DNA from: a virus
Direction: 5' to 3' (one strand)
Virus record (IMG/VR): IMGVR_UViG_3300036985_008405
Span: 1 to 47,878 of that record
DNA: 47,878 nucleotides
In this document: piece after piece, positions 10,008 to 46,979 of the stretch
How positions within the stretch are numbered: position 1 is the stretch's first letter
Layout: every line of letters starts with the position of its first letter
The notes under the pieces: generated by a model
What the model was told of the DNA's origin: nothing
The model's database searches: none
What the model saw: only the letters and a program-made list of their open reading frames with translations
Translations under genes and position numbers: made by a program

Positions 10008-10016
10008 GCCGCCTCC

Positions 10017-11078: not shown

Positions 11079-11080
11079 CG

Positions 11081-11455: not shown

Positions 11456-11463
11456 GGTTGCTC

Positions 11464-12231: not shown

Positions 12232-13997
12232 AGCTTGGAGATGTCCAGTGGCTTCCACGAGACGGAGCCCAAAGTCTGCCCCGGCTTGTCGGCCTGCAGC
12301 GCAGGGTTCAACTCGCTCACGCTCCCGAGGATGTGCGCCTCGGAGTCATCTCCGTACCGGGCCTCGATGTAGTTCTGGAAGTCAAAGTCCACGGCGAGCC
12401 CGCTCGAGACGTCCCACGAGTACTTCACCGTCTGCACATGGAAGAAGTCCTGCAGGCCTTGGAACTGGCCCCGGGACGTGCCGACCAGCAGCTCCGCGAG
12501 GTCACGATCTCCGAGCCGCTCCGCGAGGTCCGCGGTGGCTTCCTCGGGGCTCTTCGCGGCCATCAAGTTCGCATCGGAGATGATCGGCGGGTACGCCCGG
12601 AGCCCGGACGCATCGACGAGGAACTCCACCGGGTCACCGGGCCGCAGGCGCAGCAGGTCCGCGTCGGAGTTGTCGCCGGCCAGCGACGCCAAGTCCTTCG
12701 TCGAGGTGGAGCCGGAGAGCTCCCCGCGGGCGATCTCTTCGTACATCGCATGCGCGATCTGCTCGAGGCGCACCTGACTCTTGATGCCGTAGACCGGCAC
12801 CGTCATCAACTCCTGCTGCGACTCCCCACCGTTCGCGGCCACGTTCGTCGTCTTCTGCTTGCTCGCCGCTTCCTTCGGGGGCCACTGGGCCTCGAGCACC
12901 TGCCCCTTGCCGCCCTCCGCCGCGTCCGGGTCGTTGCACACGACTCGGATGGTGGGCAGCTTCGACGCCCCCGCCAGCTTCCGCGACATCTTGAAGTTGA
13001 GCAGGTTCCGCCCGTAGACCATCCGGCGAAGGCTGAACGACTCGGAGCCCACCTGCGTCTTCACCGTCCGAGGCTTGCTGTTCTTGAACGGGGTGACGCC
13101 CGACTTCGCGAGGGCCTTCCGCTGGTACAGGCTCACCGCCGGGCGGATTCGCAGCGTGTGCCCCTCGAAGTACGGGACCGCGCCCACGAGGAAGCAGAAG
13201 TTCGTCACGATGTCCCAGAAGAGCACGGTGCTCGAGTCCCCCTTCGTGGGCGACGCGGCCTTCGTTCCGTCCTTCCCCTTGTTGATGCGCGTCACCACGT
13301 CCTTCGACGCGACGTGGGGGATGACCCCGCCCGGCCACGTTGAAGCCGGGTCGCAGGTGATGGGCACCTTCCCCGACAGGCCGGCGCGCGTCAGCAGGAT
13401 GACCACCAGCTCGTTGATGGGGAGCTCGACAGGCAGGTCTTTCAGGGTGTCGGGCACGATGCGCGCGTCGAGGAAGAGGCCCTGCAGGCCGCGCCCCTCG
13501 ATGCTGATCTCGCTCCCCCTCTCCCCGAAGTCGGTGCTGATCGTGTCGGCGGTGCCGACCATCAGCAGGTTCTCGGGAACGGTCAGCAGCTTCGCCCCCA
13601 GCGCCCCGCCCCGGTCCTTCACCAGCATCGACCGGGAGAAGTCCTCGCTGCTTATCGCTCCCACGTAGATCTCCACACCGAGCGCGCGCACGGCGCGCGG
13701 GTCGAGGGGGAGGTCTTTCCACAGCAGCGTCATGCTGAACTTCGGAGCCTGCCGGTAGCCGGGGAGCTCGAAGCTGCACGTCTTCGGGACGATGCCGACC
13801 GCCCGCGACAGCCGGTCAGCCGCCCCGGACAGCAAGGCAATCTTGGGCGACGCCGGGCCGACGAAGGACGACGTCTTCGCGTCCACTGCCAGCATCGTCA
13901 CGTTCTTCGGCGGCGGCGTCTTCGAGCCCGTCAGCAGGAGCTCATCGAAGCGCAGCGTGAACCGCACGGCCAACGCCGGGTAGTAGACGCCGCTCAC
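12228..13997 (-). CDS. Tail hub protein (gpD/gp27-like)
   Basis: The protein has 589 residues and starts at GTG 13997, overlapping the TGA of the LysM-like gene (GTGA). The N-terminal half has the gp27-like sequence style with SFELPGYRQAPKFSMTLLW, EIYVGAI, STDFGERGSEISIEGRGLQG and LPINELVVILLTRAG. A Pro/Asn insert precedes EQIAHAMYEEIARGELSGS and LRPGDPVEFLVDASG, typical of hub C-terminal domains. It would form the trimeric hub between tail tube and spike. It is larger than P2 gpD (about 390 residues). Confidence 0.8.
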   Translation of the reverse strand: MSGVYYPALAVRFTLRFDELLLTGSKTPPPKNVTMLAVDAKTSSFVGPASPKIALLSGAADRLSRAVGIVPKTCSFELPGYRQAPKFSMTLLWKDLPLDPRAVRALGVEIYVGAISSEDFSRSMLVKDRGGALGAKLLTVPENLLMVGTADTISTDFGERGSEISIEGRGLQGLFLDARIVPDTLKDLPVELPINELVVILLTRAGLSGKVPITCDPASTWPGGVIPHVASKDVVTRINKGKDGTKAASPTKGDSSTVLFWDIVTNFCFLVGAVPYFEGHTLRIRPAVSLYQRKALAKSGVTPFKNSKPRTVKTQVGSESFSLRRMVYGRNLLNFKMSRKLAGASKLPTIRVVCNDPDAAEGGKGQVLEAQWPPKEAASKQKTTNVAANGGESQQELMTVPVYGIKSQVRLEQIAHAMYEEIARGELSGSTSTKDLASLAGDNSDADLLRLRPGDPVEFLVDASGLRAYPPIISDANLMAAKSPEEATADLAERLGDRDLAELLVGTSRGQFQGLQDFFHVQTVKYSWDVSSGLAVDFDFQNYIEARYGDDSEAHILGSVSELNPALQADKPGQTLGSVSWKPLDISKL

Positions 13998-18911: not shown

Positions 18912-20924
18912 TTACACGGAACGGGTGATGACGACGCCTTCACCGACTTCGGTCTGGAACACGATGTAGTCCGCGGTCGGGGTGGTCCGCACGCGACCGA
19001 TGATCACGTGCACACCCTGCGCGGACATCGCGGGGGTGTTCCCGCTCACATCATCCACCGAGTAGTCATTGATGCGCGCGGTGGCCTTGTTGTTGGGCGA
19101 CTTCAGCCCGTTCAGGAACGCATCGACCTCCCCGAGCATCGACTCCTTCAGCCCCTCGGTCAGCGGTTCCTTGCTGTACTGCACGAGCCGCTGCGACACC
19201 GAGTCCTGAATGAAGTCCGCCATGCGGCGCCGGGCGACCGTCTTCAGGCCGGCGACGAGCGAGGTGGTCACGCCCGACTGGAAGATGGGGCCGCTGGTCC
19301 GGTCCATGCGCAGGCCGCAGATGCCCGCCGCCTTGAGCGCGATGTACTCGCTCATGCCGAGCACCGGCAGGTTCCGCTGGAAGCCGGCCACCGTCGACAT
19401 CACCTCGGGGACCGGGGCCGACGCCTGCCCGGGGTTGCGCTCAGGCGGGAGGTTCGAGAGCAGCGACGCGAGGCGGACGTCCGCCGCAACATCGAGCATC
19501 CCGTCCAGCGTGGTGACGCTGGCGGCCGTCATGGTCGCCACGTTCACGGCCTCGGGCACGTACGTCTTCTCGCCGGGCCACGAGTAGAACACGCGCTCAT
19601 CGCGGTTCGCCCCGACGCCGGGGGCCGTGTCGCCGGTCACCGTGGAGACGGAGACGGTGGTCAGCGGGGGGGCGATAACGGCGATCCGCCCGACGCCGAG
19701 GCCGGACGCGGCCAGCACATGGCTCTTCAACTTGGCCGGGATGCTGGGCAGCGACACCGTGCCGGTGCGCGCGGAGACGAGGATGTTCACGTCCCGCTGG
19801 GGGGCCTGATCCCCGAGCAGCCCGTCGATGGCGGTCGCGTAGAGCGCGTCGATGGTGGCGTCGTTCACCGCGTTCGGGGCCTGCACCGTCGCGGTGTAGA
19901 TGAAGCCCGCCGAGACGTGGCTTCGCAGGGTCAGCCCGGAGAGGGGGTCCCAGCCCGAGGCGGTACCGGCGGACGGAACCACCGTCGGCGTGCAGGAGAG
20001 CCCGGACGCGATGGTGGCCGCGGTCGGGCGGCACGGGAGCTTGTAGCCCGAGGTGTCCGCCAGCGCGGCCTGAATCCCATCGAAGCCGCCGCTGTCCGCG
20101 TCCGACTGCGGGTGGATGCGGAACGGCTGCACGGTGCCGGTGGTGAGGAAGAAGCTCGAGCCGTCCAGCTTCTCGAGGGTCAGGGTGGTGTCCACGGTGG
20201 CCGCCGCCTGCACGCGGTAGGTACCCGCGTTCGTGCCCAGCGCACCCGCGCCGCCGATCTGCCCGATGACGACGATGGCGCCCTTGGGGATCGGCCCTCC
20301 GTTGTACCCGGTCAGGAAGCCGCCGCCCGCGCTGGTCCACGTCGCGGTCGCAGCAGGCGCGCCCGTGGTGGAGGCCCCGTCGATGGCGCTCTTGTAGTGG
20401 CCGAGCGCGGTGAAGTTCACCAGCTTGCCGAGGCGCACGGGGTTCGCTGCGTTGCGGAACTCACGGCCCGCGCTCACGCTGCCCCCGGACATCGGCACCA
20501 CCGGCTGCGCCTGCGTCGCGCTCAGGTTGGTGGGGAGGTCACGCCACGCGCGGCCGGCACCGGCCGACGCGAGGTTCACGGGCACGAGCACCAGCCGGGA
20601 GAACTTCTTGTTCCGCAGGGCGATGAAGCCGTTGCCCCCGGTGATGCCGGTCGACCCGAGCGTGGCGTCGAACCCACCCACCTTCGCCACCATGTCCGCG
20701 CCGGACATCACCTCGACCGGGACAGCCTTCGTGCTCACGACGCCGACGGAGTCCACCGAGGTGGCGTAGGTCATGTCGGGAAACTCCCCGACCAGCGCGA
20801 CCACGCCGCTGCTCACACCGGAGATCGAACCGGGCGGCGGAAGGTCGAGGATGATCACGCCTTCGATGAGGGTGATCGTCTCAAGACCGGGGACGTAACC
20901 GAACCTGCGAATGAAACCAGCCAT
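18912..20924 (-). CDS. Tail sheath protein
   Basis: This 670-residue protein has a clear sheath C-terminal domain: ERVFYSWPGEKTYVPEAVNV, GLRMDRTSGPIFQSGVTTSL, and ARRRMADFIQDSVSQRLVQY near residues 560-590, ending with the strand QGVHVIIGRVRTTPTADYIV that links subunits. The N-terminus GYVPGLETITLIEGV is also sheath-like. The inserted middle domain (about residues 90-330) is Gly/Thr/Ala-rich and variable, as in large sheaths. This gene is the main evidence that the particle is a myovirus. Confidence 0.9.
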   Translation of the reverse strand: MAGFIRRFGYVPGLETITLIEGVIILDLPPPGSISGVSSGVVALVGEFPDMTYATSVDSVGVVSTKAVPVEVMSGADMVAKVGGFDATLGSTGITGGNGFIALRNKKFSRLVLVPVNLASAGAGRAWRDLPTNLSATQAQPVVPMSGGSVSAGREFRNAANPVRLGKLVNFTALGHYKSAIDGASTTGAPAATATWTSAGGGFLTGYNGGPIPKGAIVVIGQIGGAGALGTNAGTYRVQAAATVDTTLTLEKLDGSSFFLTTGTVQPFRIHPQSDADSGGFDGIQAALADTSGYKLPCRPTAATIASGLSCTPTVVPSAGTASGWDPLSGLTLRSHVSAGFIYTATVQAPNAVNDATIDALYATAIDGLLGDQAPQRDVNILVSARTGTVSLPSIPAKLKSHVLAASGLGVGRIAVIAPPLTTVSVSTVTGDTAPGVGANRDERVFYSWPGEKTYVPEAVNVATMTAASVTTLDGMLDVAADVRLASLLSNLPPERNPGQASAPVPEVMSTVAGFQRNLPVLGMSEYIALKAAGICGLRMDRTSGPIFQSGVTTSLVAGLKTVARRRMADFIQDSVSQRLVQYSKEPLTEGLKESMLGEVDAFLNGLKSPNNKATARINDYSVDDVSGNTPAMSAQGVHVIIGRVRTTPTADYIVFQTEVGEGVVITRSV

Positions 20925-23458: not shown

Positions 23459-24868
23459 TTACTCGCCGTGCTCGATGACCACCGCGCGCTTGTAGTACGC
23501 GATGTCGCCGCTGGTGGCGTCGGTGCGAACCGGCCAGTCACCGATGAACTTCCACGCCGTGGACACGACGTCCTGCAGGCGGTTCAGCGGCGAGCGGATG
23601 ATGAGCTGGACGCGGTCGGCGTTCACCTCGATGCCGTTGTTGCTGATGCGGGGCTCGGCCACCTTGCCCGTCAGGCCGGCCTCGGTGATCAGCGCCGAGA
23701 GATCCTGATGGTACTCGTGGATGAAGCCCTGCCCGCAGAAGAGCGGGCGGTGCACGCGGACACCGCTGACCGCGCCGGTGTTGAACAGCTCACCCGCGAA
23801 GTTGTCGTCCTGCGAGAACGTCGCGGTCTGGCCGCCGGTGACCGTCTCGGGGAGCGGGCACTCGCTGTTGCGGAAGAACACGGTGTTCAGCAGCACGCCG
23901 AGCGCGAACTGCCGGTACATGTAGTAGTCCGGCAGCGAGGTGAGCAGCCGCTGGAACTCGGCGTCCGCGAAGATCTGCGCCTGCGACGTGGGGTCGAGGT
24001 GGGCGTGGAAGTACCCGTCGGCGTGCTCGGGGACGTTCATCGACCAGAAGCGGGCGACGGCCGCGCGGATGTCCGCGAGGCGCAGCAGGTCGGTGGAGCC
24101 GACGTCGTCGACCTTCTTGCCGCCGCCGACGCGCACCAGCGAGGTGCGGTTGTCGGAGATGACGTACGCGCGGTCGAGGACCGTCACGGCGCCGCCAGCG
24201 ATGGTCAGCGTGCCGGGCCCGATCTCATCGCCCACGGTGTCGGGCGTGTACCCCGTCACGGTGCGCGAGACTTCCGCGGGACCGGCGTTGTCGAAGATCT
24301 TGATGGGGAGCGGGTTGTTCGACGACACCGAGTCGAAGCGCACGGGCGAGCCGGCGGCGAGGTCGGGGCGGCGAGCGCGGGTGAAGCCCATCAGCCGCTT
24401 CACGCGCAGCGTGGTCACCGCGGCCTGCGCACCGTCCGCGACGGTGTGACCCGCGAGGCCGGCGTTGTAGAGCTTGTTGCGGACCAGCCGGTTCATCGTC
24501 AGACCGGCCGACAGGCCGAGCTGCTGCGCGTTGCGCAGGAACATGTTGGCGATGGCCGAGATGCTGGTGGGCATGTGGGTGTCGATCGCGTCCCCGTACT
24601 GCTGGAGCTGCGCGTCCCACTGCTCGGCACCGAAGCTCGAGGGGGTCGGGTCGACGCCGGGGGTCAGCGGGCGCATCTTCGGGGGGATGAGCCCCGCGCC
24701 GGTGAAGACCATCCGGTCACCGACGTTCGCGGGCCACTGAACCGGCGACGCTTCGCCGCGGAACAGGAGGCGGGGGAAGAGGGCATCGTGGAAAGCGCGC
24801 TCGAGGATGTTGTCCTGCACCATCGAGCGGATTTCGGGGGCCTGCAGGATCGTACTGAAGTCGGGCAT
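23459..24868 (-). CDS. Major capsid protein
   Basis: This 469-residue protein follows the scaffold gene. The N-terminal segment MPDFSTILQAPEIRSMVQDN and the capsid-like stretches ADGYFHAHLDPTSQAQIFAD and FQRLLTSLPDYYMYRQFALG fit HK97-fold capsid proteins of the N4 gp56-like kind. So does the later NNGIEVNADRVQLIIRSPLN. No protease-cleaved delta domain is obvious, which agrees with a separate scaffold. ATG 24868 has GAGGAAG six bases upstream. The leader carries a long inverted repeat. Confidence 0.85.
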   Translation of the reverse strand: MPDFSTILQAPEIRSMVQDNILERAFHDALFPRLLFRGEASPVQWPANVGDRMVFTGAGLIPPKMRPLTPGVDPTPSSFGAEQWDAQLQQYGDAIDTHMPTSISAIANMFLRNAQQLGLSAGLTMNRLVRNKLYNAGLAGHTVADGAQAAVTTLRVKRLMGFTRARRPDLAAGSPVRFDSVSSNNPLPIKIFDNAGPAEVSRTVTGYTPDTVGDEIGPGTLTIAGGAVTVLDRAYVISDNRTSLVRVGGGKKVDDVGSTDLLRLADIRAAVARFWSMNVPEHADGYFHAHLDPTSQAQIFADAEFQRLLTSLPDYYMYRQFALGVLLNTVFFRNSECPLPETVTGGQTATFSQDDNFAGELFNTGAVSGVRVHRPLFCGQGFIHEYHQDLSALITEAGLTGKVAEPRISNNGIEVNADRVQLIIRSPLNRLQDVVSTAWKFIGDWPVRTDATSGDIAYYKRAVVIEHGE

Positions 24869-28409: not shown

Positions 28410-28706
28410 CTAGTCCTTGACGTAGACCTTCTCTCCGCTCTCGCTCATGAAATACTTACCGCCTCGCGCGCCGGTTTCAATGGCGTGTTTCTCCGCGCGG
28501 TCAAGTGCCTTCACCGTCGCCTGTGCACGCAGGTTGTCGCCTTGCTTCGAGAGGCGCGACTTCGTCTGCGCCTCCTTCGATGCCGACGCGGCGGACGCGC
28601 GCTCCTGCGCGCGCATCTTCATCGCGCGACCGAACGCCGCGAGGGTGTAGAGCCCATCCGGTTGTGCGTACCTCGACTTGAGCCGTTCGTACCCTGCGGA
28701 GTCCAT
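28410..28706 (-). CDS. Small basic helical protein with C-terminal Gly-rich tag
   Basis: The protein has 98 residues (ATG 28706). A basic, Ala/Ser-rich helix covers residues 20-72. The last 24 residues (IETGARGGKYFMSESGEKVY then VKD) match the C-terminus of the next upstream gene and the N-terminus of the plus-strand Zeta-type protein. The tag looks like a beta hairpin, TG[AP][KR]GG then SG.K.Y. A virion or capsid-docking role for the tag is inferred. Confidence 0.7.
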   Translation of the reverse strand: MDSAGYERLKSRYAQPDGLYTLAAFGRAMKMRAQERASAASASKEAQTKSRLSKQGDNLRAQATVKALDRAEKHAIETGARGGKYFMSESGEKVYVKD

Positions 28707-28718
28707 CGCGCGTTCCCC

Positions 28719-30617
28719 TTACTTCCCACCGATGTAGCGCTTGCTGCCGCTCGCGGTCAGGATGTACTGCCCGCCCTTCGCGCCCGTCTGGACAGACTTC
28801 GACGCCTTGTTCGCGGCTGCTGCGGCCTGCCCGCTTTCTGCGGCGGAACCCGTCTCGAATTTCTTCGCGGCGTCGCGATGCAGCTTCGCCGCATCGGCAT
28901 GACTCCCCTGAGCGCCCGCACCGAGGTTCCTATTCCTCGCCTGAGCGGCGTGCTCCTTCGCCTGAGCAGCGTGGAAGTCAACCGACGCCTGCCGGGACAT
29001 CGGGGCGCCCTTCTTCGCCTGCGCCAGACGCGCGAGGGGGTTCTGCGACTTGCCGCCGAGCACCGTCGCCACGCCCTTCTCGTTCAGCATCGACTCCCCC
29101 GACTTGGCGCGGTCCCGCATCGCCCCGACGAGGCGATCCGCCATTCCCATCGCGGCTGCCGCCTTCGGGCCGATGGGGGAGGCATTCTCGTTCGGCTTGC
29201 CGATGATCCCACTCCCACGGCGCTCCGGGTCCAAGTCGCTGTCCTTCTCTTCCCGCGCGGGACGCATGCCGGCATTCGCCGTGGCGGTACGTGCCGACTT
29301 GGACGCGGCGTCACTGGGATTCTCTGCCGCCCGCGCATGCGCGGCCGCCGCCATCGCGTGCCGCCCCGCGACGGGATGGCCCTCACCATGCTCTTTCGAC
29401 AGGCGGGCCGCCTCCGCCACATGGCGCTCTGCGGACGTCGCGTGCTCCGAAGCCTGCTTTGCCGCAGCGACCTTCGCCGCATCGCCGGGGTTCTTCGCAG
29501 CCGCCTCATGCAGCTTCGCGGCGCTCTCATGCCCACGCGCGACACGCCACTTCGCCTTCGCGTCCTCGACGTCCTTCTGGCTCAGGCCGGACCAGTGCTC
29601 GTCCTCCATCACACCGCCGGCGTAGTCATGCTTCGCGTGGAAGTCATCGCTCGCCGCGGTGTGCTTCGCGGCAGCGGCGATGTGCTCATCGCGCCCATCC
29701 TCGTGCTTGGTGATGGCGGCCGACGCTTTCTTCATCGCCTCCTTGCCGGCAGCACGCTCCTCCGGGGTGCTGCCGTACTTCATCCGAGCGACGCCGTCGG
29801 CGTGCTTGTCGAGGTGCTTCTCGAGCTCACGGTCAGCACCGCTGCTCCGCTTCGCCTTCGCATCCTTCTGCGCCCGTTCCTGCCCCTCGAGGATGGCCAC
29901 ATGCGTGGCGTGGTCCCCTTCTGCGAGACCGTCCCAGAACTCCTCGTCCTCGTAATCGAAGGTGCCGGCCTTGCCGTGCTCCACCGTCTCCGCTTCCGAC
30001 GTGGCACCGTGCGCCTCGCGCGAGAGCTTCTCCGCGTCCTTGCCGCCAGAGGCATGGGCTTCAGCGGCGGCGGCGTGCTTCTTCGACGCGGCATCGAAGC
30101 GCTCGGCGCGCTTGGGGTCGAAGTCGCTTCCCTTCTTCCGCTCATGCGCCGCGCGGTCGCGCATCCCCTTCGCGATGTTCGCGTGCAGCTTCGCCGTGTC
30201 GCTCGGCTTGAACGACTCGTCGCGGTAATCGCTCGAGTCCCCTTCGGGGGCCTTGGGCATCTCTTCCACCGGGCCTGACCCGCGATCGCCGCCAGAGCTC
30301 GACTTCGACTTCGCCTTCTTCAACCTCGCCAGCGGATTGCCCTTCATGCGGGACTCCTTTGCCATCTGCTTCAGTTCGGCGACCTCATCCGGGTCACTGT
30401 TCGGCTCGTTCTCTGCCTGCTTGATGACGTTGCGCTCGTGCCGCTCAATCGAGCGCGCGTCCTCATCAGCCGAGACGCCCGGAGGCTTCACCCCGCGGGC
30501 GCGGTTCCTCGCGACGATGCTGTCGAGCTTCGCCTGCGCGGCGGCCAGCTTGTCCTTCGCAGCGGCGTGCCGGACGAGCGCGTTGTCCAGCGTCTTGAAC
30601 GTCTTCTTCAGGGCCAT
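28719..30617 (-). CDS. Large His/Ala/Lys-rich helical head-region protein with Gly-rich tag
   Basis: This 632-residue protein starts at ATG 30617. It consists mostly of helical segments with repeated H-x2-3-A-A spacing (AAKLHEAAAKNPGDAAK, SAERHVAEAARLSKEHGEGH, GRHAMAAAAHARAAE), so His occurs at a very high rate. Two similar basic motifs, NPLARLKKAKSK near residue 93 and NPLARLAQAKKG near residue 525, flank the repeats. The last 27 residues carry VQTGAKGGQYILTASGSKRY followed by IGGK. No enzyme motif is present. It is probably a structural or internal head protein that may contact DNA or capsid through its many basic residues. Confidence 0.65.
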   Translation of the reverse strand: MALKKTFKTLDNALVRHAAAKDKLAAAQAKLDSIVARNRARGVKPPGVSADEDARSIERHERNVIKQAENEPNSDPDEVAELKQMAKESRMKGNPLARLKKAKSKSSSGGDRGSGPVEEMPKAPEGDSSDYRDESFKPSDTAKLHANIAKGMRDRAAHERKKGSDFDPKRAERFDAASKKHAAAAEAHASGGKDAEKLSREAHGATSEAETVEHGKAGTFDYEDEEFWDGLAEGDHATHVAILEGQERAQKDAKAKRSSGADRELEKHLDKHADGVARMKYGSTPEERAAGKEAMKKASAAITKHEDGRDEHIAAAAKHTAASDDFHAKHDYAGGVMEDEHWSGLSQKDVEDAKAKWRVARGHESAAKLHEAAAKNPGDAAKVAAAKQASEHATSAERHVAEAARLSKEHGEGHPVAGRHAMAAAAHARAAENPSDAASKSARTATANAGMRPAREEKDSDLDPERRGSGIIGKPNENASPIGPKAAAAMGMADRLVGAMRDRAKSGESMLNEKGVATVLGGKSQNPLARLAQAKKGAPMSRQASVDFHAAQAKEHAAQARNRNLGAGAQGSHADAAKLHRDAAKKFETGSAAESGQAAAAANKASKSVQTGAKGGQYILTASGSKRYIGGK

Positions 30618-31733: not shown

Positions 31734-32069
31734 TCAATTACGCTGTCGCTTCGTGAACGCCGTCAAGCGGCGAGCGCGAAGCATGGCGTCGGCGTCGGAA
31801 ACTGCGGGCTTGCCATCTTCCCCGCCGTAGTCCCACGAATCCTTGTCGACCTCATCGAGCGTCTTGTCCGCGCACTCCGCGAGATCGCTGGTGGAGAGCT
31901 CACCCATCGTGAAGCGCAGGTGGTCAATGGCGCGCGTCACTTCCTCGTCGCCGGGGTCGAGCGCGCGAAGCGCCGAAATCGCTTGCTCAATTGCTTCCGC
32001 AGGGGCGCCTTCCAAGATGAGCGAGTCGGCCTGCATGATCAACGGAGCCATTTTCGAGAACGGAATCAT
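31734..32069 (-). CDS. Acidic helical protein, head region
   Basis: The product has 111 residues and starts at ATG 32069, overlapping the TGA of the protease-like gene (ATGA). It is acidic and helical with ADSLILEGAPAEAIEQAISA and TRAIDHLRFTMGELSTSDLA, ending in a basic TKRQRN. Translational coupling to the upstream gene suggests a partner role. No family is recognised. Confidence 0.6.
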   Translation of the reverse strand: MIPFSKMAPLIMQADSLILEGAPAEAIEQAISALRALDPGDEEVTRAIDHLRFTMGELSTSDLAECADKTLDEVDKDSWDYGGEDGKPAVSDADAMLRARRLTAFTKRQRN

Positions 32070-33763
32070 CGCTTCCCCTTGGGCACTCGCATCTTGCGAA
32101 CCTTCTTGATGCACTCGACGACCTTCATATCGAGCGCGTCGGAACGCGCCCCGTTGTCCCAAACGCGCATCACACCGCTCGATGCGTCAACATCGAGCTT
32201 CGTGCCGTTCGCCATGTGCTTGCGCAGGATGTTGCCGACCAGCTCGCGCGCCTTCCCGAAGTGCGCGTGCGTGCGCGGGAGATGGTTCGAGATGATGCCG
32301 TCCGCCAACCGATTGAAGCGCATCGACCCGCGGGTGTGCTTGCACGCCAGTGACCACTTCTCGAGGTCGGCGGCTCGGCCCTCCGGTGTCGTCGCGTTCG
32401 ACGCGAGGGCGACGGCTCCGATGAAGCGCCCGGTCCAGTTCATGTACGCGCTCGAGCGCCCCTGCTCCCAGCCCTGCACGGACACCGACTTCCCGTGACG
32501 CTCCGTGAGGTACGACCCCGCCCCGACGACGAGGCTCGAGTGGTGCTGCCCGGTGTTCACCAGACCGATGTGGTTCGCGACACGCGCTGCTGTGAGCTGG
32601 GCAAGCACCTCGGTCGTGGCCTCTTCCATCGCCTTGTGCGGTGCGTTGTCGTTTCGCACCTCGTACTTGTAATCGGGGTGCGACCCCGCGTGACCGAGCT
32701 CGTGCGCCAGCACACGAATCGCTTCACCCTGCGGAGTGCCCGCGTTGTAGGTCTTCGCCTTCATCGCGGAGATGAGCGACGACGCCATGCGCGTGGTCAG
32801 CGTCAGCTTCCCCTCCGCGGAGCGGTACCAGCCGACGGCGGTGTCACGGCGCGGCGCCACGCTGATCGCGACGAGCCCGACGGGGCGGTACTCGTGCCCG
32901 GGGATCGCGCGGGAGAACTCCTGCACGACGTTCTGCAGCCGCTCGCGGATGGCCGGCTGGTCCAGCCACCGCTCCATGAGGACGTTCGACTCAGCCTCCG
33001 CCCGCTTCGCCTCGGGGGACGACTTCATGTCGTACTGGCCGTCGCCGAGGTACTCGACACGCCCCACCGCCGCGAACACCTCCAAGTTCTTGATCGACGT
33101 CCCCTCGATCTTCCCGTCCGGGTCGAGGGTGTGCGCGATGTGCGCGCGGGCTGCCTTGACGAAGTCCGATTCCGCCTGAGCGCCACGCTCCCCATGCTCC
33201 GCGACGCCCCCGGGCAGCTTCCCTCCGACCTTGTCGAGGGAAGCGTGCCACTCGGCTTCGTCATCGAGCTCCGCGATGCGCGCCACCATCGCGTCCTTCG
33301 CGATGCGCGCCACCATCGCGTCCTTCGCGGTCGCCAGACCCCACGAGTCGAACTTCGTTTCCTCGAGACGGGCGTACGTCTTCGCCAAGTCTTTCAGCAG
33401 GGTGTCCTTCGGGTACCGCGCGAGCGCGTCGGCCCCAAAGTCCCCTGTCTGCTTCGGCTTCACCGGCTCAGGCTTCGGGGGAGGCGGAGGCGGTAGCGGC
33501 GGCTTCTCGAGGACGGGCTCAGGCAGCGGCGGCGGCGGGTCTTCCGGCTTCTTCGCCGTCCCGTCCGCCTTCTTCTTCGCGCGGAACCTGTCCTCGTAGA
33601 CCTTCCGCTTCGCGCGCTCGGCCTTGAACTTGTCGATCACCGCGGTGTCGGTGACCTCCTTGTCCCCCGGCTCCCGCTCCTCCGGCTTCACCCACTGCTT
33701 GCGCCAGAACGTCGTGCCGGCGCGGGTGATCTCGCGCTCGACGAGAATCAGGTCGCCGCTCAT
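32066..33763 (-). CDS. Head-region protein with gluzincin metalloprotease motif
   Basis: Start ATG 33763 gives 565 residues. The N-terminus VEREITRAGTTFWRKQWVKP is a basic, aromatic strand-rich segment. A Pro-rich linker follows (residues 75-103). From about residue 285 there is a globular domain with IRVLAHELGHAGSHPDY, where HELGH lies at residues 354-358. MEEATTE at about 379-385 could supply the third zinc ligand. This is the HExxH plus Glu layout of gluzincins. Most phage head maturation proteases are serine enzymes, so it may be an ejected effector rather than a maturation protease. An AKDAMVARI unit is duplicated at residues 146-163. Confidence 0.65.
   Translation of the reverse strand: MSGDLILVEREITRAGTTFWRKQWVKPEEREPGDKEVTDTAVIDKFKAERAKRKVYEDRFRAKKKADGTAKKPEDPPPPLPEPVLEKPPLPPPPPPKPEPVKPKQTGDFGADALARYPKDTLLKDLAKTYARLEETKFDSWGLATAKDAMVARIAKDAMVARIAELDDEAEWHASLDKVGGKLPGGVAEHGERGAQAESDFVKAARAHIAHTLDPDGKIEGTSIKNLEVFAAVGRVEYLGDGQYDMKSSPEAKRAEAESNVLMERWLDQPAIRERLQNVVQEFSRAIPGHEYRPVGLVAISVAPRRDTAVGWYRSAEGKLTLTTRMASSLISAMKAKTYNAGTPQGEAIRVLAHELGHAGSHPDYKYEVRNDNAPHKAMEEATTEVLAQLTAARVANHIGLVNTGQHHSSLVVGAGSYLTERHGKSVSVQGWEQGRSSAYMNWTGRFIGAVALASNATTPEGRAADLEKWSLACKHTRGSMRFNRLADGIISNHLPRTHAHFGKARELVGNILRKHMANGTKLDVDASSGVMRVWDNGARSDALDMKVVECIKKVRKMRVPKGKR
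33272..33327 (-). repeat. 27-bp perfect tandem duplication in the metalloprotease-like gene
   Basis: The unit at 33274-33300 is repeated at 33301-33327 and duplicates nine codons (AKDAMVARI) in frame. The copies show no base differences, so the duplication is recent. Confidence 0.85.
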
Positions 33764-33795
33764 CGCTTGCACCGTCGGAAACGCATGCCTGCTTC

Positions 33796-34749
33796 CTACA
33801 ACGGAACTCGACGACCCCCCAAGTACTGCCACCCCGGGATGCCCCACCGCTTCATCCACGGCGACATCACGCTCCGGTCGTTGGGGCGGTTCGGCGGGAA
33901 CTCCCACGAGCGACCCACCAACGACTTGGGCACGTCGGTCTTCCCCTTCGCATCGGGAAAGGGCGACGTCGCGGGCATCGTGAAGAGCCCCCCGACCGCC
34001 GCCACCTGCCCGTGCATCGCGATGGAATCGACCCCCACGCGGTCATCCATCGGCTCGCCGTCCGCGTCGCAGTACTCCTCCCACCGCTGCCGGATGTCCG
34101 GGAAGTCCTTGCTCATGTCGCGCAGCCCGTCCGAGATGGCCGCGTTGTCGGCCCACGCGAGCTCGGTGCGGACGATGCGCTCGCCCTGCCACCACTCGCC
34201 GCCGATGGTGTCCATCACCGCGTCGATGGCGTCGTCGGGGGTGCTGCCCGTCATCAAGCTCTGCGCGAGGTTGTCCTCCAACGCCATGACGACGTGCACG
34301 CCGTACCGCTGCATCGAGCTCGTGTTCATCGCCAGCAGCGACGTCTCCCGCTGGTCAATGACCCCCGCGAACCGCGACGCCTTCTCGATGGGCACGGTGA
34401 TCTCCGCCCCGGTGAACTTCTTGTGCAGCCGGGTCACGTCCTTCACCAGCCCATGCAGCGCCCCGCTCTGCGCCTTCTTCAGGGCCGGCTTCATCGCCTT
34501 CGCCATGTGCGTCGCGATCTCCGCCTGCCCATGCCGAAGCTGGGTGAGGACGATCCGCGCCTGATGCGCAGTGAACGACTCCCCACGCCCCGCCCTCATC
34601 GCCTTCCTGAGCTTGCTCTCCACCGCGGCCTGCGACGTGTCGTAGAGCTTCTTCAACCGCCCGGCCGTCTGGTTCGACAACTGGTCGTGCAACCGCGCTC
34701 GGTGCTCGGCTACGGCGGAGTGGAAGGCGTGAGGGACTTTGGGCGCCAT
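33796..34749 (-). CDS. Mu F-like minor head (head morphogenesis) protein
   Basis: This 317-residue protein (ATG 34749) has the MuF core: a helical N-terminal half, then QGERIVRTELAWADNAAISD at about residues 188-207. The terminal signature SWEFPPNRPNDRSVMSPW lies at residues 281-298. These proteins bind the portal inside the head. The portal gene lies three genes upstream in transcription. No C-terminal toxin domain is fused; the protein ends 19 residues after the signature. Confidence 0.85.
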   Translation of the reverse strand: MAPKVPHAFHSAVAEHRARLHDQLSNQTAGRLKKLYDTSQAAVESKLRKAMRAGRGESFTAHQARIVLTQLRHGQAEIATHMAKAMKPALKKAQSGALHGLVKDVTRLHKKFTGAEITVPIEKASRFAGVIDQRETSLLAMNTSSMQRYGVHVVMALEDNLAQSLMTGSTPDDAIDAVMDTIGGEWWQGERIVRTELAWADNAAISDGLRDMSKDFPDIRQRWEEYCDADGEPMDDRVGVDSIAMHGQVAAVGGLFTMPATSPFPDAKGKTDVPKSLVGRSWEFPPNRPNDRSVMSPWMKRWGIPGWQYLGGRRVPL

Positions 34750-35358: not shown

Positions 35359-35645
35359 GTCGTTCTCCCGACCCACGTCTTGTTCTTCCTGCGCTTTCCT
35401 CGCTGCGTCAGCCCCTGCTCATTCAACATCGTGCGGAGCCATGCGTGGTAGATCCGCTGGTAGTTCCGCAGGCACTCGGCGCGCCGACACACGAGGGCGC
35501 CAGCTCGGTGCAGCGCCTCTTTGCAGAAGAGGCAGAAGCCCTCCGCGACCTTGAGCTGCAGGTCACGGAGGGCGGGGCACTTCGAGATGCGCCTACTCGG
35601 GCTGCTCGGGGAACTCGTACTGCTCATCGAGTTGCTGCTGCTCAT
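35355..35645 (-). CDS. Small Cys4 zinc-finger-like protein overlapping the portal 3' end
   Basis: I use ATG 35645 (GGGGGA upstream), which overlaps the portal gene by 53 bases; ATG 35627 is an alternative. The first 20 residues are Ser-rich and low in complexity because they overlay Gln-rich portal codons. The conserved-looking part is CLFCKEALHRAGALVCRRAE and CLRNYQRIYHAWLRTML, a CxxC...CxxxxC knuckle followed by an Arg/Tyr-rich helix. It could bind nucleic acid. The start is uncertain. Confidence 0.55.
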   Translation of the reverse strand: MSSSNSMSSTSSPSSPSRRISKCPALRDLQLKVAEGFCLFCKEALHRAGALVCRRAECLRNYQRIYHAWLRTMLNEQGLTQRGKRRKNKTWVGRTT

Positions 35646-37353
35646 CGAATCCCCCGGTCATGCCGCCGAACATCTGCTGCTGCTGCTGCTCGGCGGCAGA
35701 GGCAGCCGCCGCCTGAATCTTCTGGATCATCGCGGTCACGTTATCGACCGAGAAGAAGGGCGCGGCGAACTTGATCGCCGTCTCCTCATCGATCAGCCCG
35801 GCCGTCTTCGCGTCCCCGGCGGCCTTCACCGCGGCGGACGTGTCGTCCAGCGACGGCGGGAAGTAGTCAGGCCACTGCAGCCGAATCGACCCGCCGCTGC
35901 CCGGCTGGAGCTCGGTCTTCACCTGCATCCCCGTCATGGGGTCGACGGAGATCTGCGGGGGCAGCTTCAGCACCGACTTCACGATGCCGATCGGCTGCCC
36001 CGTGACCGGGTCGACGGCGGGCTGCCCGGTGGCCGGGTCCACCTGCTCCACCGGCTGCGCGAGCGCGGACGCCGCCTTGAACATCATCTCCAGCAGCGGC
36101 TTGATGCACCGCTCGCCGTACTGCTCGCGCATCACGTCCGTCTTCTGCAGCATGCTCATGTACGTCCGCGTCACCTCGGTCGCGGTGCGCCCGCCGCCCG
36201 CGTCACCCGGGTGTTCGAGCACGCACTGCGCCACCTCGAGGGCGAACTTCCGCAGCGACTCCGCCTGCTCCATCGCGGCCTTCGGGCCGGACGCCTGCAT
36301 CTCGAGGTACTGCGCGCTCGACCCCTCCGGCAGCTTGATGGCGTTGTCGCTGCCCTTCTTGATGTCCGACCCCATCTCGCCTTTCGACGTGATGATCAGG
36401 GTCGGGTCGCAGTTGGCGATGATGCCGCGGTTCGCCTGCGAGATGAGCGCGTCGATCTGCTCGACCACCTCGTAGATGCCGTGGCAGTCCGGGTCCCCGT
36501 CGATGTCGTCCTCGACGGGCATGTTCTGCACCCAGACGACGGGGCAGAACCCGAAGCCGTGGGCGACCTGCTTGTCGATCTCCCACTTCGGCTCTTCGCC
36601 GTCCCCCACCTCGGCGGGCTTGAAGACGGTGTCCATCTCCATGTCGATGATGCGGCGGTACCAGTACTGCTTCGTCTCGAACCGCCCGGTGGCCGGGTCA
36701 CGGACCTCAACCGGGTGCAGGTACCGCTTCTCCACCTTCTCCAGCAGCAGGGAGGAGCGGTCGGAGAAGGCGGGCTGGACCCAGCGGGGGTCGTGCACCT
36801 CGACGACAGGCTTCCCGTCGACGAACTGGAACCCGATGCAGGCCGACCCCGTGGCGCCGCCGAACGTCCGCACGCGGATCATCGCCTGCCACAGCCGGGA
36901 GACGTCGACGACGGCGCGCAGGTAGTTCGCGCTCATCTCGTCACCGTCCACGTTGATCTCGGGGCTCTGGTTCTCGCTGAAGAGCAGCCCGGTGAACCTG
37001 TCCACGCACACCTTCACCAGCGCGTAGGGGGAGCTCGGCCGGCGGAACTTCAGCGGGGTGCCCTGCCCGCCGACGTCGATGAACCCGGGCGGGATGGAGC
37101 CCCGCGAGGCGACGGCCTCGAGCTCGAGCGGCTCCATGTTCTTCTTGCCGTTCCAATCGAGGGCGCGCGCCGAGTAGTTCATGCAGCGGTACCAGCCCCA
37201 CAGCCGGTTCAGCTCCTGCTGCCGCGGCGACATGCCGAGCCGGGCGATGCGGTCCATCGGCCCGGAGCCCGAGTCCTTCCCGCCCGTGCTCCCCTTCGAG
37301 CTCAGTTTGTTCATCAGGGAACCGATGATGCCGGGGGATGCGGAAGGTGCCAC
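35593..37353 (-). CDS. Portal protein
   Basis: This 586-residue protein starts at GTG 37353 with AGGAGG four bases upstream. It shows portal features: a helical N-terminus, RFTGLLFSENQSPEINVDGD, a beta wing region (RTFGGATGSACIGFQF), EQIDALISQANRGIIANCDP leading to the long central helix, and ATEVTRTYMSMLQKTDVMRE. A Pro/Val/Gln-rich linker VDPATGQPAVDPVTGQPIGI and a Gln-run C-terminus (AEQQQQQMFGG) follow. It forms the dodecameric DNA gate. The terminase lies further upstream and MuF downstream, as expected. Confidence 0.9.
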   Translation of the reverse strand: MAPSASPGIIGSLMNKLSSKGSTGGKDSGSGPMDRIARLGMSPRQQELNRLWGWYRCMNYSARALDWNGKKNMEPLELEAVASRGSIPPGFIDVGGQGTPLKFRRPSSPYALVKVCVDRFTGLLFSENQSPEINVDGDEMSANYLRAVVDVSRLWQAMIRVRTFGGATGSACIGFQFVDGKPVVEVHDPRWVQPAFSDRSSLLLEKVEKRYLHPVEVRDPATGRFETKQYWYRRIIDMEMDTVFKPAEVGDGEEPKWEIDKQVAHGFGFCPVVWVQNMPVEDDIDGDPDCHGIYEVVEQIDALISQANRGIIANCDPTLIITSKGEMGSDIKKGSDNAIKLPEGSSAQYLEMQASGPKAAMEQAESLRKFALEVAQCVLEHPGDAGGGRTATEVTRTYMSMLQKTDVMREQYGERCIKPLLEMMFKAASALAQPVEQVDPATGQPAVDPVTGQPIGIVKSVLKLPPQISVDPMTGMQVKTELQPGSGGSIRLQWPDYFPPSLDDTSAAVKAAGDAKTAGLIDEETAIKFAAPFFSVDNVTAMIQKIQAAAASAAEQQQQQMFGGMTGGFDEQQQLDEQYEFPEQPE

Positions 37354-37361
37354 GGTGCCTC

Positions 37362-38009
37362 CTAAGCGAGCTGCGTGAAGTCCCGAGCAGCCGGGCTTTC
37401 CATCTTGTACCGCAGGCCGCGCTTCTTCGCCCTCGTGTACTGCTTGCGGAGCACGTCACGCTTCAGCACCGACAGGTGATCGACCAGCGTGATGCCGTCC
37501 AGATGCTCGATCTCGTGCTGCAGGCACGCCGCCAGATGCCCGTCGCACTCGATGTCCACCCGCGCGCCCGTCTCATCCCACGCCTCGACGCGCACCGCCG
37601 CGAACCGCTTGATGGCCGCATTCAGGCCGGGGAATGAGAGGCACCCCTCTTCGCCCATCACGAGCTCAGGCTTGTTGTCGTCGCCCAGCGTGTACGCGGC
37701 CGCCTTCTCCGCCGACCGCAGCGGGATGACCACCGGGTTCACCAGCTTCAGCACCACATGCTCCGCGGAGTCGACGCGCTTCGCGACCACGACGATCAAC
37801 CGCAGGGAGAACCCGACCTGTGGGGCGGCGAGCCCGATGCCGCGCACCGCGTGCATCGTCTCCTCCATGTCGTTCAGCAGGGCACGCACCCCATGCCACG
37901 GGTCTTCCCCGCCAAGCGCAGCGGCGGCTCCACTGGCGAGTGGTGCCGGCACCGCCTCACAGCGTCGGGAGAGGATCGAATCAGGCCAGATGACGATGGG
38001 TCGCTTCAT
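37362..38009 (-). CDS. def: Peptide deformylase
   Basis: This is a 215-residue protein (ATG 38009, AAGGCG upstream). All three deformylase motifs are intact: GIGLAAPQVG at residues 57-66, EGCLSFPG at 121-128 with metal-ligand Cys123, and QHEIEHLDG at 164-172 with His165, catalytic Glu166 and His169. The enzyme removes the formyl group from N-terminal formyl-methionine on new proteins. Unlike the short forms reported from some phages it retains a C-terminal helix (VLKRDVLRKQYTRAKKRG), and it has an insert at residues 22-45. It sits immediately upstream of the portal gene in the same operon, so it is expressed with late genes. Confidence 0.92.
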   Translation of the reverse strand: MKRPIVIWPDSILSRRCEAVPAPLASGAAAALGGEDPWHGVRALLNDMEETMHAVRGIGLAAPQVGFSLRLIVVVAKRVDSAEHVVLKLVNPVVIPLRSAEKAAAYTLGDDNKPELVMGEEGCLSFPGLNAAIKRFAAVRVEAWDETGARVDIECDGHLAACLQHEIEHLDGITLVDHLSVLKRDVLRKQYTRAKKRGLRYKMESPAARDFTQLA

Positions 38010-38041
38010 GGTGTGTACGCCTTCTGCGGTGCTGCGCGTTT

Positions 38042-38353
38042 TCACGCGTCGATCATCTGCCCGTTCTGGATGAACCCGTGCCAGTCGCCCGGGATGTTGA
38101 TGCTCGGGCTCAAGGTGAGGGTCGCGAGCGACTCCCCTGAAACCTGCCAGCGGGCGAGCGGCTGCGCCTCGGGCGGGACCGGGGGGGTGCCCGAGGGGTT
38201 GGAGAACCACACGACGATGCGGTGGGAGCACCCGGGCTTCGGGCAGCGGAACAGCACCCCCTGCGCCCCGTTGATGTTCGGCAGCAGGTGCAGCCCGCCG
38301 ACGGTGTACTCCCCAACGAACGACGGCTCGAGCTCGGTCAGCATTCGCGGCAT
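38042..38353 (-). CDS. DUF6527-like protein
   Basis: The product has 103 residues (ATG 38353). It contains LFRCPKPGCSHRIVVWFSNP, then RWQVSGESLATLTLSPSINI, and PGDWHGFIQNGQMID. The sequence of CP..GC, a W, LSPSI and a WHGFI..G end fits the DUF6527 pattern of phage and bacterial small proteins. The family has no established function. The two Cys plus His residues may bind a metal. Confidence 0.6.
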   Translation of the reverse strand: MPRMLTELEPSFVGEYTVGGLHLLPNINGAQGVLFRCPKPGCSHRIVVWFSNPSGTPPVPPEAQPLARWQVSGESLATLTLSPSINIPGDWHGFIQNGQMIDA

Positions 38354-38693: not shown

Positions 38694-39863
38694 ATGAGCG
38701 ACGACCCTGTGCAGACTGGCCCCCGTGGCGGGCAGTTCATCGAAACTCCCAGCGGAACCAAGCGCTACGTCGGCAAGGAGGGCGCCGCCGCCGCCAAGCA
38801 GGTGGGCGAGCAGGTCGAAAAGCTCCTCAAGGGAACCCTCGCCAAGCTCGCCGCAACCGGGTGGAAGGGCGGCGAGAAGGGCGCCCCGACCGTCCGCACC
38901 CAGAAGGCCAAGCTCAAGACCGCGCACGAGGACGACGTCGGCCGCATCGCGAAGCTCCCCAAGGGCGAGCAGCGAGCGGCCTTCAAAGAGCTCGCGGAAA
39001 CCACGCAGGCGGACATCGAGGCCGGGAAGCTCAAGCCCGAGGGCGGCAAGGCGCAGGAGTGGCTCGAGGGGGACGAGAACAAGGACGCGTGGAAGGTGGC
39101 CGACAAGGACACCTCGTGGGCCAAGTACTACTCGGCCGACTCCAAGCCGGGCGACCCCAAGGCCGTGCCGACCGACCCCGCGCGCAAGCTCATGCAGGAG
39201 GAGGCGAAGAAGGTCTTCGTCGGGAAGAACTCCGTCGCCAAGCCGGGCGAGCAGAAGATCGCGATCATCATGATGGGTGGGCCGGGCTCGGGGAAGACCA
39301 GCTCGCTCCCCAAAGACCTCGACTGGAGCAAGTTCGCCAAGGCCGACGCCGACGGGCTCAAGGGGCACCTGCCCGAGTTCCGCGACGGCGTGAAGGCGAA
39401 GTCCATGCGCAGCGCGGGCATCGCGCACGAGGAGTCCAGCGCGATGTCGAAGCAGGTTGTCGCGCAGGCCATCGAGGAGAACCGCCACCTCGTCATGGAC
39501 GGCACCGGCGCCACGCTGAAGTCCTACGACGACGCCATCAAGAAGCTCAAGGACGCCGGCTACCACGTGCAGCTCAACTTCGTGCACCTGCCCTACGAGA
39601 AGGCGGAGCCGCGCATGTTCTCCCGCGCGGAGGGTGTCGGCCGCTTCGTCCCGCTCGACGACGCGAAGCAGAAGCACCGCGACGTTCCGTCCAACTTCGA
39701 GCACTTCGCCAAGCAGGTGGACCGCGCGATCATGTACGACAACGACGTGCCGATGGGCGAGCCCATGCGCCGCATCGCGGAGTACGGCGGCGGCAAGGTG
39801 GACAAGATGCACCACGACGACTTCTACGCGGACTTCAAGAAGAAGTACCCGCAGAAGGACTAG
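38694..39863 (+). CDS. Zeta-toxin-like kinase with N-terminal Gly-rich tag
   Basis: This is the only plus-strand gene. ATG 38694 gives 389 residues; GTG 38670 is possible, and neither has a good ribosome site. Residues 6-28 form a tag (VQTGPRGGQFIETPSGTKRY then VGK) shared with two head-region proteins. A Lys/Glu-rich helical linker follows. A kinase domain starts near residue 187 with Walker A GGPGSGKT (195-202), then DADGLKGHLPEF (218-229), HEESS (245-249), HLVMDGTGA (265-273), AGYHVQLNFVHLP (288-300) and Arg307/Arg311. This order matches Zeta/PezT-type enzymes, which phosphorylate UDP-N-acetylglucosamine and block wall synthesis. The tag suggests virion loading, which is inference. It converges with the minus array and shares a CTAG with it. 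Confidence 0.8.
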   Translation: MSDDPVQTGPRGGQFIETPSGTKRYVGKEGAAAAKQVGEQVEKLLKGTLAKLAATGWKGGEKGAPTVRTQKAKLKTAHEDDVGRIAKLPKGEQRAAFKELAETTQADIEAGKLKPEGGKAQEWLEGDENKDAWKVADKDTSWAKYYSADSKPGDPKAVPTDPARKLMQEEAKKVFVGKNSVAKPGEQKIAIIMMGGPGSGKTSSLPKDLDWSKFAKADADGLKGHLPEFRDGVKAKSMRSAGIAHEESSAMSKQVVAQAIEENRHLVMDGTGATLKSYDDAIKKLKDAGYHVQLNFVHLPYEKAEPRMFSRAEGVGRFVPLDDAKQKHRDVPSNFEHFAKQVDRAIMYDNDVPMGEPMRRIAEYGGGKVDKMHHDDFYADFKKKYPQKD

Positions 39864-45515: not shown

Positions 45516-46979
45516 TCAGCGGCTCATCAGGTCCATGTTGCCGCTGACGACCTTCTGGTCCCCGAGGCGTGCGCCCTCCCGAGCGAACCACGAGGCCATC
45601 AGCCGGTCGCCTGTGTGGGCGGTGGGGTCGTAGTAGAGCATCTCGCTAACCCACGCATCGACCTCGGGAGCGCAGCGTCCTTCGCTGCTCGGGATGATCC
45701 ACTTCCCGCCTGCCATCTCCGCTGCGATGGACTCGATGCCGAACTCGGGGTGCGCCTTGTTGCGGCCCGTCGTGAAGGGTCGAATCGGGACAGCGAACAT
45801 GCCCCGCGCGAACTGGATGATGAAGTCCTGCGCTGCGTTGTTCTCGACGATGGCGATGCTGAAGAACCGCCGGTGGTGGTCGATAATCTTCGCCACGATT
45901 TCAGGCCCCGCCCACTTCCCCGCCTCGATGCACAGCACCTCGCGGTCCCCGTTGGGGTGCACCGCGATGGTGAACAGCACCGTGCTGTCCGCGGCGCTGT
46001 GCTGCTGCACAGCGAGGTCGACCCCTGTGTACGTCTTGATGCCGGGGGGCAGCACCGAGAGCCCGAACGCGAGGCTCCGCCCGTTCCCTCGGAAGAGGCA
46101 CCTGTCGATCCACTCCCTCTTGAAGCGCGCGCTCGAGTCATCGCGGGCGATGCACAGCATCTGCCGACTGAACTCCATCGGCCCGAGGGCGATGCGCTTC
46201 TTCGCGATGCGGTCCAGCGGCCACCGCTCGGGCCACCGCGAGCTCCCATCATCGTTCATCACCGGGTAGCGGAACGCCTTCCACCCCGGGGCGCGGGCGA
46301 AGCGGTGCAGCATGTCGTCCGGGTGGTACGCGGTCCCGACCACCGTCACCCGGCCACGCTTCGTCAAGCGGCCCTCGAGCGTCGCGTGGTACCAGTCCCA
46401 GAGGTCGTCTCGCTGCTTCTTCGACTTGGTGTTCTCGTAGTCAAGGACGTCGTCAAGGATGACGCGGTCCAGACGAGCCCCGAGCACGTTGCCGTGGATG
46501 CCGAACGCCTGAATCGAGGGGTCCTTCGAGACGAAGGGGCGCCGCACCGTCAGCTTCGTCGACGTCCACTGGTCCCCGGGGATGAGGTTCGGGAACACCG
46601 CATGGAGCGCATCGCTGCTCTCGATGTACTTCGAGATGGAGCGCACAATCTTCTCCGCCTGCCCGTGCGTGTTGCTCACCACGGCGATGCGCTTCGTCGG
46701 GTCGCAGCCGATTTCCCACAGCGTTCGGGCCACCGAGAGCTGTGTCGTCTTCCCGTGCTCGATGGCGCTCCACAGCAGCAGGCGCTCATTCTCATCGACG
46801 AGCTTGTGCCACATCTGGTGCAGCTTCGCCTGTCGCAGCGGGAAGCCCGTCTCCTCATCACGCAGCACCGACGTCGCGAACGCGTTCACGTCCACACGAG
46901 CGAGCTGCGTCAGCCGGGCACGAAGGGCGACCCGAGGGTCAATTGATGTTGAGCGGGCCGACAGGGACGGTGGTGCCAT
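45516..46979 (-). CDS. terL: Terminase large subunit (packaging ATPase and nuclease)
   Basis: This 487-residue protein starts at ATG 46979, overlapping the small subunit by 41 bases. The ATPase has a Walker A of unusual form SAIEHGKTT (residues 71-79), Walker B DRVILDDV (171-178) and the coupling motif VVGTAYHPDD (213-222). The C-terminal nuclease has GVDLAVQ with Asp321, IVENN with Glu379, and TGDRLMASW with Asp458 as likely metal ligands. The protein drives DNA into the procapsid at the portal and cuts the concatemer. Confidence 0.9.
   Translation of the reverse strand: MAPPSLSARSTSIDPRVALRARLTQLARVDVNAFATSVLRDEETGFPLRQAKLHQMWHKLVDENERLLLWSAIEHGKTTQLSVARTLWEIGCDPTKRIAVVSNTHGQAEKIVRSISKYIESSDALHAVFPNLIPGDQWTSTKLTVRRPFVSKDPSIQAFGIHGNVLGARLDRVILDDVLDYENTKSKKQRDDLWDWYHATLEGRLTKRGRVTVVGTAYHPDDMLHRFARAPGWKAFRYPVMNDDGSSRWPERWPLDRIAKKRIALGPMEFSRQMLCIARDDSSARFKREWIDRCLFRGNGRSLAFGLSVLPPGIKTYTGVDLAVQQHSAADSTVLFTIAVHPNGDREVLCIEAGKWAGPEIVAKIIDHHRRFFSIAIVENNAAQDFIIQFARGMFAVPIRPFTTGRNKAHPEFGIESIAAEMAGGKWIIPSSEGRCAPEVDAWVSEMLYYDPTAHTGDRLMASWFAREGARLGDQKVVSGNMDLMSR

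What the first reader, a model, noticed from the sequence alone, without database searches (positions are those of the whole stretch)
38694..39863. Zeta-type kinase wears the same Gly-rich tag as two head-region proteins
Residues 6-28 of the plus-strand kinase (VQTGPRGGQFIETPSGTKRY) align with the C-termini of the products at 28719-30617 (VQTGAKGGQYILTASGSKRY) and 28410-28706 (IETGARGGKYFMSESGEKVY). The tag sits N-terminally on the kinase and C-terminally on the others, so it behaves as a movable module. Zeta enzymes poison wall-precursor synthesis. A shared docking tag would let the phage carry the kinase in the virion and inject it, or target it to the capsid. I recall short Gly-rich segments of this kind at ends of phage proteins but cannot name a family.
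Basis: partly seen in the sequence, partly recalled or inferred. Interest (0 to 1): 0.8.

Follow-up and report, generated by a model that had tools for sequence, protein, structure and literature searches.

The report
Swappable tag on a phage kinase
A bacterial virus encodes a toxin-like kinase that starts with the same 22-residue tag found at the ends of two proteins from its head-gene region; related viruses put such short tags on many unrelated enzymes, and one relative has the kinase with a different tag, so the tags look like exchangeable address labels, probably for loading enzymes into the virus particle.

Summary
A 22-residue motif, TG-x-(R/K)GG-x-(Y/F)-x5-G-x-K-x-Y, sits N-terminally on the plus-strand zeta-type kinase and C-terminally on two minus-strand products. 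A profile built only from outside sequences scores the three copies 51-65 bits; the next best site in the window scores 2 and 30 random surrogates reach at most 9. The closest family is Pfam PF08789 (PBCV basic adaptor), matched below cut-off here and above it in one relative. In related phages the tag also sits on a RelA/SpoT synthetase, a GNAT-like protein, metallopeptidase-like and ParB-like proteins, almost always between the terminase/portal and major-capsid genes. Viral zeta kinases elsewhere are fused to MuF or carry other short headers. One co-linear relative has the kinase with an unrelated header. Kinase headers recur on a neighbour in the same locus in 8 of 18 cases versus 2 of 306 cross-locus pairs. 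I read the tag as a virion-targeting header on an injected effector, like T4 capsid-targeting sequences. Against this: the motif is common on secreted Bacteroidota proteins, the kinase is transcribed opposite to the head genes, and virion presence is untested. The wall-precursor target is also unproven.

The parts
38694..39863 (+). stand-alone zeta-type kinase (389 aa) with N-terminal tag; gene opposite in orientation to the head genes
   Evidence: Pfam Zeta_toxin PF06414 E 1.6e-22; AF2 model pLDDT 83 matches epsilon/zeta, PezT and AvrRxo1
38709..38774 (+). tag on kinase, VQTGPRGGQFIETPSGTKRYVG; modelled as a beta-hairpin followed by a helix and a floppy linker
39276..39653 (+). kinase active-site motifs: Walker A GGPGSGKT (aa 195-202), ADAD (217-220), HEESS (245-249), DGTG (269-272), RAEGVGR (311-317)
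28719..30617 (-). Ala/His-rich basic protein (632 aa, pI 9.3) with C-terminal tag
28728..28793 (-). tag VQTGAKGGQYILTASGSKRYIG
28410..28706 (-). small basic protein (98 aa, pI 9.8) with C-terminal tag
   Evidence: PF08789 E 0.0083
28416..28481 (-). tag IETGARGGKYFMSESGEKVYVK
35593..37353 (-). portal protein
   Evidence: SPP1_portal E 2.9e-8; phrog_145 E 3.6e-10
33796..34749 (-). MuF-type head morphogenesis protein
   Evidence: phrog_2468 E 7.1e-6; relatives in 13 further records
32066..33907 (-). metallopeptidase-like protein with a different header, REITRAGTTFWRKQWVKPE; the likely start is inside the listed ORF
   Evidence: MPTase-PolyVal E 0.0045, below cut-off; header seen on ART-like proteins of record G024
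23459..24868 (-). major capsid protein
   Evidence: phrog_1357 E 1.1e-14
45516..46979 (-). terminase large subunit
   Evidence: phrog_38 E 3.3e-61

Best explanation
The gene encodes a zeta-family kinase that works as a virion-carried effector, and its N-terminal PF08789-like hairpin is a detachable targeting header. During head assembly the header binds a partner shared with the C-terminally tagged proteins (the head core, portal/MuF region, packaged DNA or the tags themselves). This loads the kinase into the head, and it enters the next cell with the genome, where it phosphorylates a nucleotide-linked metabolite. Shown here: tag homology, terminal placement, clustering with head genes, cargo diversity, tag swap in a relative, and header matching within loci. 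Inferred: loading into the virion, injection, the binding partner and the substrate.
For: (1) The tag is a real, separate module: kinase residues 138-384 match a relative's kinase while residues 4-46 match only tags on unrelated proteins of related phages; in the model a floppy linker (55-78) separates hairpin and helix from the kinase domain. (2) Placement: 33 tagged proteins of other viruses have it near an end; 18 of 20 tags lie within 7 kb of MuF, P = 4.6e-9 treating tags as independent; tagged genes also lie close to unrelated portal families. (3) Cargo: N-terminal tags on RelA/SpoT (E 8e-16), GNAT-like, metallopeptidase-like and ParB-like proteins; C-terminal tag on a tail-completion/Neck1 protein. 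Zeta and RelA/SpoT domains are known as MuF fusions in phages, and polyvalent proteins are proposed to be packaged and injected (PMC5512222). (4) Equivalence: viral zeta kinases are MuF fusions or carry other short headers; closely related loci have MuF-header-kinase as one gene (L324) or as MuF plus header-kinase (L319, L328). (5) Tag swap: record G031 resembles the window's phage (TerL 54%, portal 50%, MuF 45%, capsid 66% identity) and has the kinase (35%) with header HPRAEGGRW. (6) Matching: 8/18 same-locus versus 2/306 cross-locus, p 7e-10. (7) Precedents: PBCV-1 kinases A278L and A282L, with basic adaptor domains, are in the virion and found with its DNA (PMC3281028); T4 CTS and the P1 DarB N-terminal 30 residues direct cargo into heads (PMC9026906, PMC9024508).
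Against: No virion proteomics exists for this uncultivated phage. The kinase runs opposite to the head genes, and no sigma-70-like promoter or clear ribosome-binding site was seen. The motif is common on secreted Bacteroidota proteins, so it does not by itself specify virions. P1 Dar proteins show no common tag (PMC9024508). Header matching could partly reflect local duplication, and clustering tests treat related phages as independent.
Confidence: 0.6

Rival explanations
1. The tag is a general basic adaptor that binds nucleic acid or another polyanion. It is selected on any protein that profits from such binding; in the phage it keeps proteins on packaged or replicating DNA rather than docking them to a head protein.
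For: Tag mean charge +3 per 22 residues and most tagged proteins are basic; PBCV-1 tagged kinases were recovered with virion DNA; the motif also occurs on secreted proteins outside phages.
Against: Plain DNA binding does not predict that header type is matched within a locus and differs between phages, nor clustering around MuF. Window tag charges are only +1 to +3.
Confidence: 0.2
2. The tags are linkers or recombination joints: remnants of fission and fusion of long polyvalent/MuF proteins, spread by local duplication, without a targeting role.
For: Headers also occur inside long proteins, as in the neighbours in L269, L290 and L273 and in L324, and as fragments inside tagged proteins (L044, L109).
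Against: The tag is conserved at protein level with third positions least conserved against the kinase copy, and PF08789-type tags were terminal in all phage proteins tallied. The same motif recurs in unrelated phage groups and in bacteria.
Confidence: 0.12
3. The kinase is an ordinary accessory toxin gene (moron or toxin-antitoxin type) expressed in the infected cell or lysogen; the tag has a role there unrelated to the virion.
For: Single gene on the opposite strand; in G001 the tagged RelA/SpoT is also on the opposite strand, 25 kb from the terminase gene, next to an HD-domain gene.
Against: No neighbouring gene gave an antitoxin family match. Zeta kinases of other viruses are fused to MuF. 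The header is shared with head-region proteins.
Confidence: 0.15

Closest known systems
Pfam PF08789 PBCV_basic_adap (chlorovirus virion kinases A278L/A282L)
   Same: Same short Gly-rich basic motif, attached to a kinase, in a dsDNA virus; the chlorovirus proteins are virion-packaged (PMC3281028)
   Different: Window copies score below the Pfam cut-off; the kinase is zeta-type rather than a protein kinase; here it is on phage proteins
T4 capsid-targeting sequence (IPI-III, Alt) and P1 DarB N-terminal signal
   Same: Short terminal signals that bring unrelated proteins, including effectors, into the head for ejection (PMC9026906, PMC9024508)
   Different: No sequence similarity seen to P1 Dar N-termini; T4 signals are N-terminal and cleaved, these occur at either end and cleavage is unknown
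Phage polyvalent and MuF-fused effectors
   Same: Same effector kinds (zeta, RelA/SpoT, metallopeptidase, ParB, ART-like) in head-gene context (PMC5512222)
   Different: Separate small proteins that share a tag instead of long multidomain chains or MuF fusions; 'basic adaptor' is not mentioned in that paper
Epsilon/zeta and PezAT toxins; AvrRxo1
   Same: Same kinase fold and active-site motifs
   Different: No antitoxin found beside it; extra N-terminal tag and helical region; substrate unknown

Membership tests
PF08789 PBCV_basic_adap | profile match above gathering score | tested here: not met
   98-aa protein 16.7 bits vs cut-off 20.4; kinase and 632-aa protein not listed. A relative's protein (G010) passes at 25.2 bits. 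Filed as PF08789-like only
PF08789 PBCV_basic_adap | conserved TG..GG.Y ... G.K.Y core, basic, fused to other domains | tested here: met
Zeta_toxin PF06414 | profile match and P-loop kinase motifs | tested here: met
   E 1.6e-22, 80.4 bits vs 22.3; Walker A, D, R and GR conserved; fold match
epsilon/zeta toxin-antitoxin system | adjacent cognate antitoxin gene | tested here: not met
   none of the nearby genes scanned matches an antitoxin family
epsilon/zeta toxin-antitoxin system | phosphorylates UDP-N-acetylglucosamine | not testable with these tools
   needs enzyme assay; AvrRxo1 is an equally close fold match
capsid-targeting sequence | short terminal signal shared by unrelated proteins of one phage | tested here: met
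capsid-targeting sequence | needed and sufficient for entry into the head | not testable with these tools
   needs virion proteomics and reporter fusion
polyvalent proteins | two or more disparate domains in one chain | tested here: not met
   kinase has one recognised enzymatic domain

The most novel reading that the evidence does not exclude
Tailed phages use a repertoire of short, mutually unrelated but interchangeable header motifs as virion address labels. Each phage uses a matched set: core or structural proteins and injected effectors wear the same label, so effectors can be exchanged between phages by swapping the label.
Probability: 0.4. Interest if true: 0.85.

Novelty: new variant of a known kind. 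Interest (0 to 1): 0.62.

Why it matters
Capsid-targeting signals have been shown experimentally in T4 and P1; how most other phages choose which proteins enter the head is little known. A searchable tag would let virion-carried effectors be predicted from sequence, give a direct test of head loading, and explain how MuF-fused and stand-alone effectors relate.

Tried and rejected
Chance similarity: rejected. tblastn of two consensus tags and of the 98-aa protein in isolate phages gave no match, so no cultivated phage with this tag was found. Solved structure of the tag: only spurious short hits. P1 Dar N-termini as the same header: no resemblance. Single-sequence structure prediction was poor (pLDDT 41) and was replaced by the alignment-based model. 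Literature on the basic adaptor: one relevant paper found. Recent horizontal insertion of the kinase gene: no sign, GC is the same as the surroundings. L340 in the header-matching test may be a mis-called start; without it 7 of 17, p 1e-8.

Full report
WHAT WAS CHECKED. The window is an IMG/VR virus record of 47,878 bases. The head genes run on the minus strand: terminase 45516-46979, portal 35593-37353, MuF 33796-34749, major capsid 23459-24868; a tail-sheath gene follows at 18912-20924. The kinase is on the plus strand at 38694-39863, between terminase and portal. The two other tagged products are on the minus strand between MuF and capsid. All quoted residues are present.

IS IT MORE THAN CHANCE. 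A position-specific matrix from 29 tags of other viruses scores the three window copies 65.3, 53.8 and 51.4 bits; the next site in six frames scores 2.0 and the best of 30 surrogates 8.8. Third codon positions are the least conserved in the comparisons with the kinase copy.

WHAT THE TAG IS. Pfam finds PF08789 (PBCV basic adaptor) below its cut-off in the 98-aa protein (E 0.0083) and above it in a protein of relative G010 (E 1.8e-5). A pattern scan of viral contigs gave 110 stretches. Nearly all hold the tag in frame near a protein end, in two broad classes: small, often Cys-containing proteins with other residues before TG, and a phage-rich class with Q/E before TG. In bacterial genomes the Q/E class is mainly on proteins with signal-peptide-like starts from Bacteroidota, at the C-terminus, although a Hymenobacter tail-completion-like protein (L237, judged by eye) also has it. 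So the module is general and phages are one of its users. In the structural model the tag is a beta-hairpin (residues 14-17 and 23-26), then a helix, then a low-confidence linker before a confident kinase domain.

WHERE PHAGES USE IT. Whole-record searches of 30 virus records show one to four tags each in 28 of them. About half of these records share the window's portal, MuF, capsid or terminase families; 18 of 20 tags in the eight longer records with MuF (window included) lie within 7 kb of it, 5.6 expected (related phages counted as independent). Records with unrelated portal families also have tagged genes close to the portal. Cargo: RelA/SpoT domain (E 8e-16), GNAT-like, metallopeptidase-like and ParB-like proteins with N-terminal tags (only the RelA/SpoT match is above its Pfam cut-off), and basic Ala/His-rich or tail-completion proteins with C-terminal tags. 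Nearby untagged genes include ADP-ribosyltransferase-like (DRAT) proteins with a second header type that the window's own 32066-33907 protein shares.

ZETA KINASES ELSEWHERE. Eighty viral loci with relatives of the kinase were fetched. None has the PF08789-like tag. Some are MuF fusions; stand-alone ones carry other short headers: HPR..GGR(F/W), TRNGQTFEETYYV, GKTYQKVAKDKWEPV, HGSHDQSTHG, GGPGSGNFGHRGRPG and RKVITNKKGRRQTVYV. In one lineage MuF-header-kinase is a single gene (L324, L327) or split into MuF and header-kinase (L319, L328). Record G031 carries the same head genes (terminase 54%, portal 50%, MuF 45%, capsid 66%) and has the kinase on the opposite strand as here (35% identity), but between portal and MuF and with the header HPRAEGGRW. 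The window kinase is thus two modules with separate relatives. Of 18 kinase clusters with short N-terminal regions, 8 share that region with another protein of the same locus, versus 2 of 306 cross-locus pairs, p 7e-10; without one doubtful case 7 of 17, p 1e-8. In L269 the partner is a DarB-like protein, and P1 DarB has an experimentally shown N-terminal head-targeting signal (PMC9024508), though of different sequence.

HOW IT MOST LIKELY WORKS. The header docks the kinase to a partner shared with the tagged head-region proteins, it is packaged, and it is ejected with the genome. Matching of header type within a phage favours a specific partner or tag-tag pairing over plain DNA binding; the PBCV-1 precedent (PMC3281028) keeps DNA binding open. 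Docking, packaging, ejection and substrate are inferred. The kinase fold is as close to AvrRxo1 as to zeta toxin, so the wall-precursor target is not established; nearby genes show no antitoxin family.

LIMITS. No virion data; transcription opposite to the head operon with no recognised promoter or clear ribosome-binding site; incomplete records; header classes other than PF08789 were recognised by eye before the unbiased N-terminal comparison; the local-duplication rival is not fully excluded.

Noticed in passing
window 37362-38012 (-): Peptide deformylase gene (PF01327, E 4.2e-37) just upstream of the portal gene.
   Followed up: no
window 38042-38353 (-): DUF6527 protein (E 7.9e-8) between deformylase and kinase.
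   Followed up: no
L144 7690-8610 (-) and 6831-7475 (+): Tagged RelA/SpoT synthetase beside an HD_4 domain protein in convergent orientation, possibly an alarmone toxin with its hydrolase.
   Followed up: partly
L148 15734-16567 and 16560-17453 (-); L151 9185-10321 (-): DRAT-type ADP-ribosyltransferase-like proteins in the head region; the two in L148 share an N-terminal header with window 32066-33907.
   Followed up: partly
L319, L324, L327, L328: MuF and zeta kinase fused in some members and split in others of one phage lineage, with an RDAGGRF header at the junction.
   Followed up: partly
L273 N-terminal region of the kinase and 8830-13968 (+): Cys-rich header (CGVGYGCGSTCISRAKDCR) shared by a zeta kinase and a 1712-aa neighbour.
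   Followed up: no
L204, L241, L246, L247: The tag ends large RHS-like proteins (judged by eye) of Flavobacteriaceae-type genomes.
   Followed up: no
L275 8999-11731 (+): 910-aa protein with a metallopeptidase-type match (PF07737, E 1.3e-6) that shares an internal header with the adjacent zeta kinase.
   Followed up: no
L145 10918-11361, L147 6775-7242, L268 9466-9939: A small HAD-like protein recurs next to the portal gene in this phage group.
   Followed up: no
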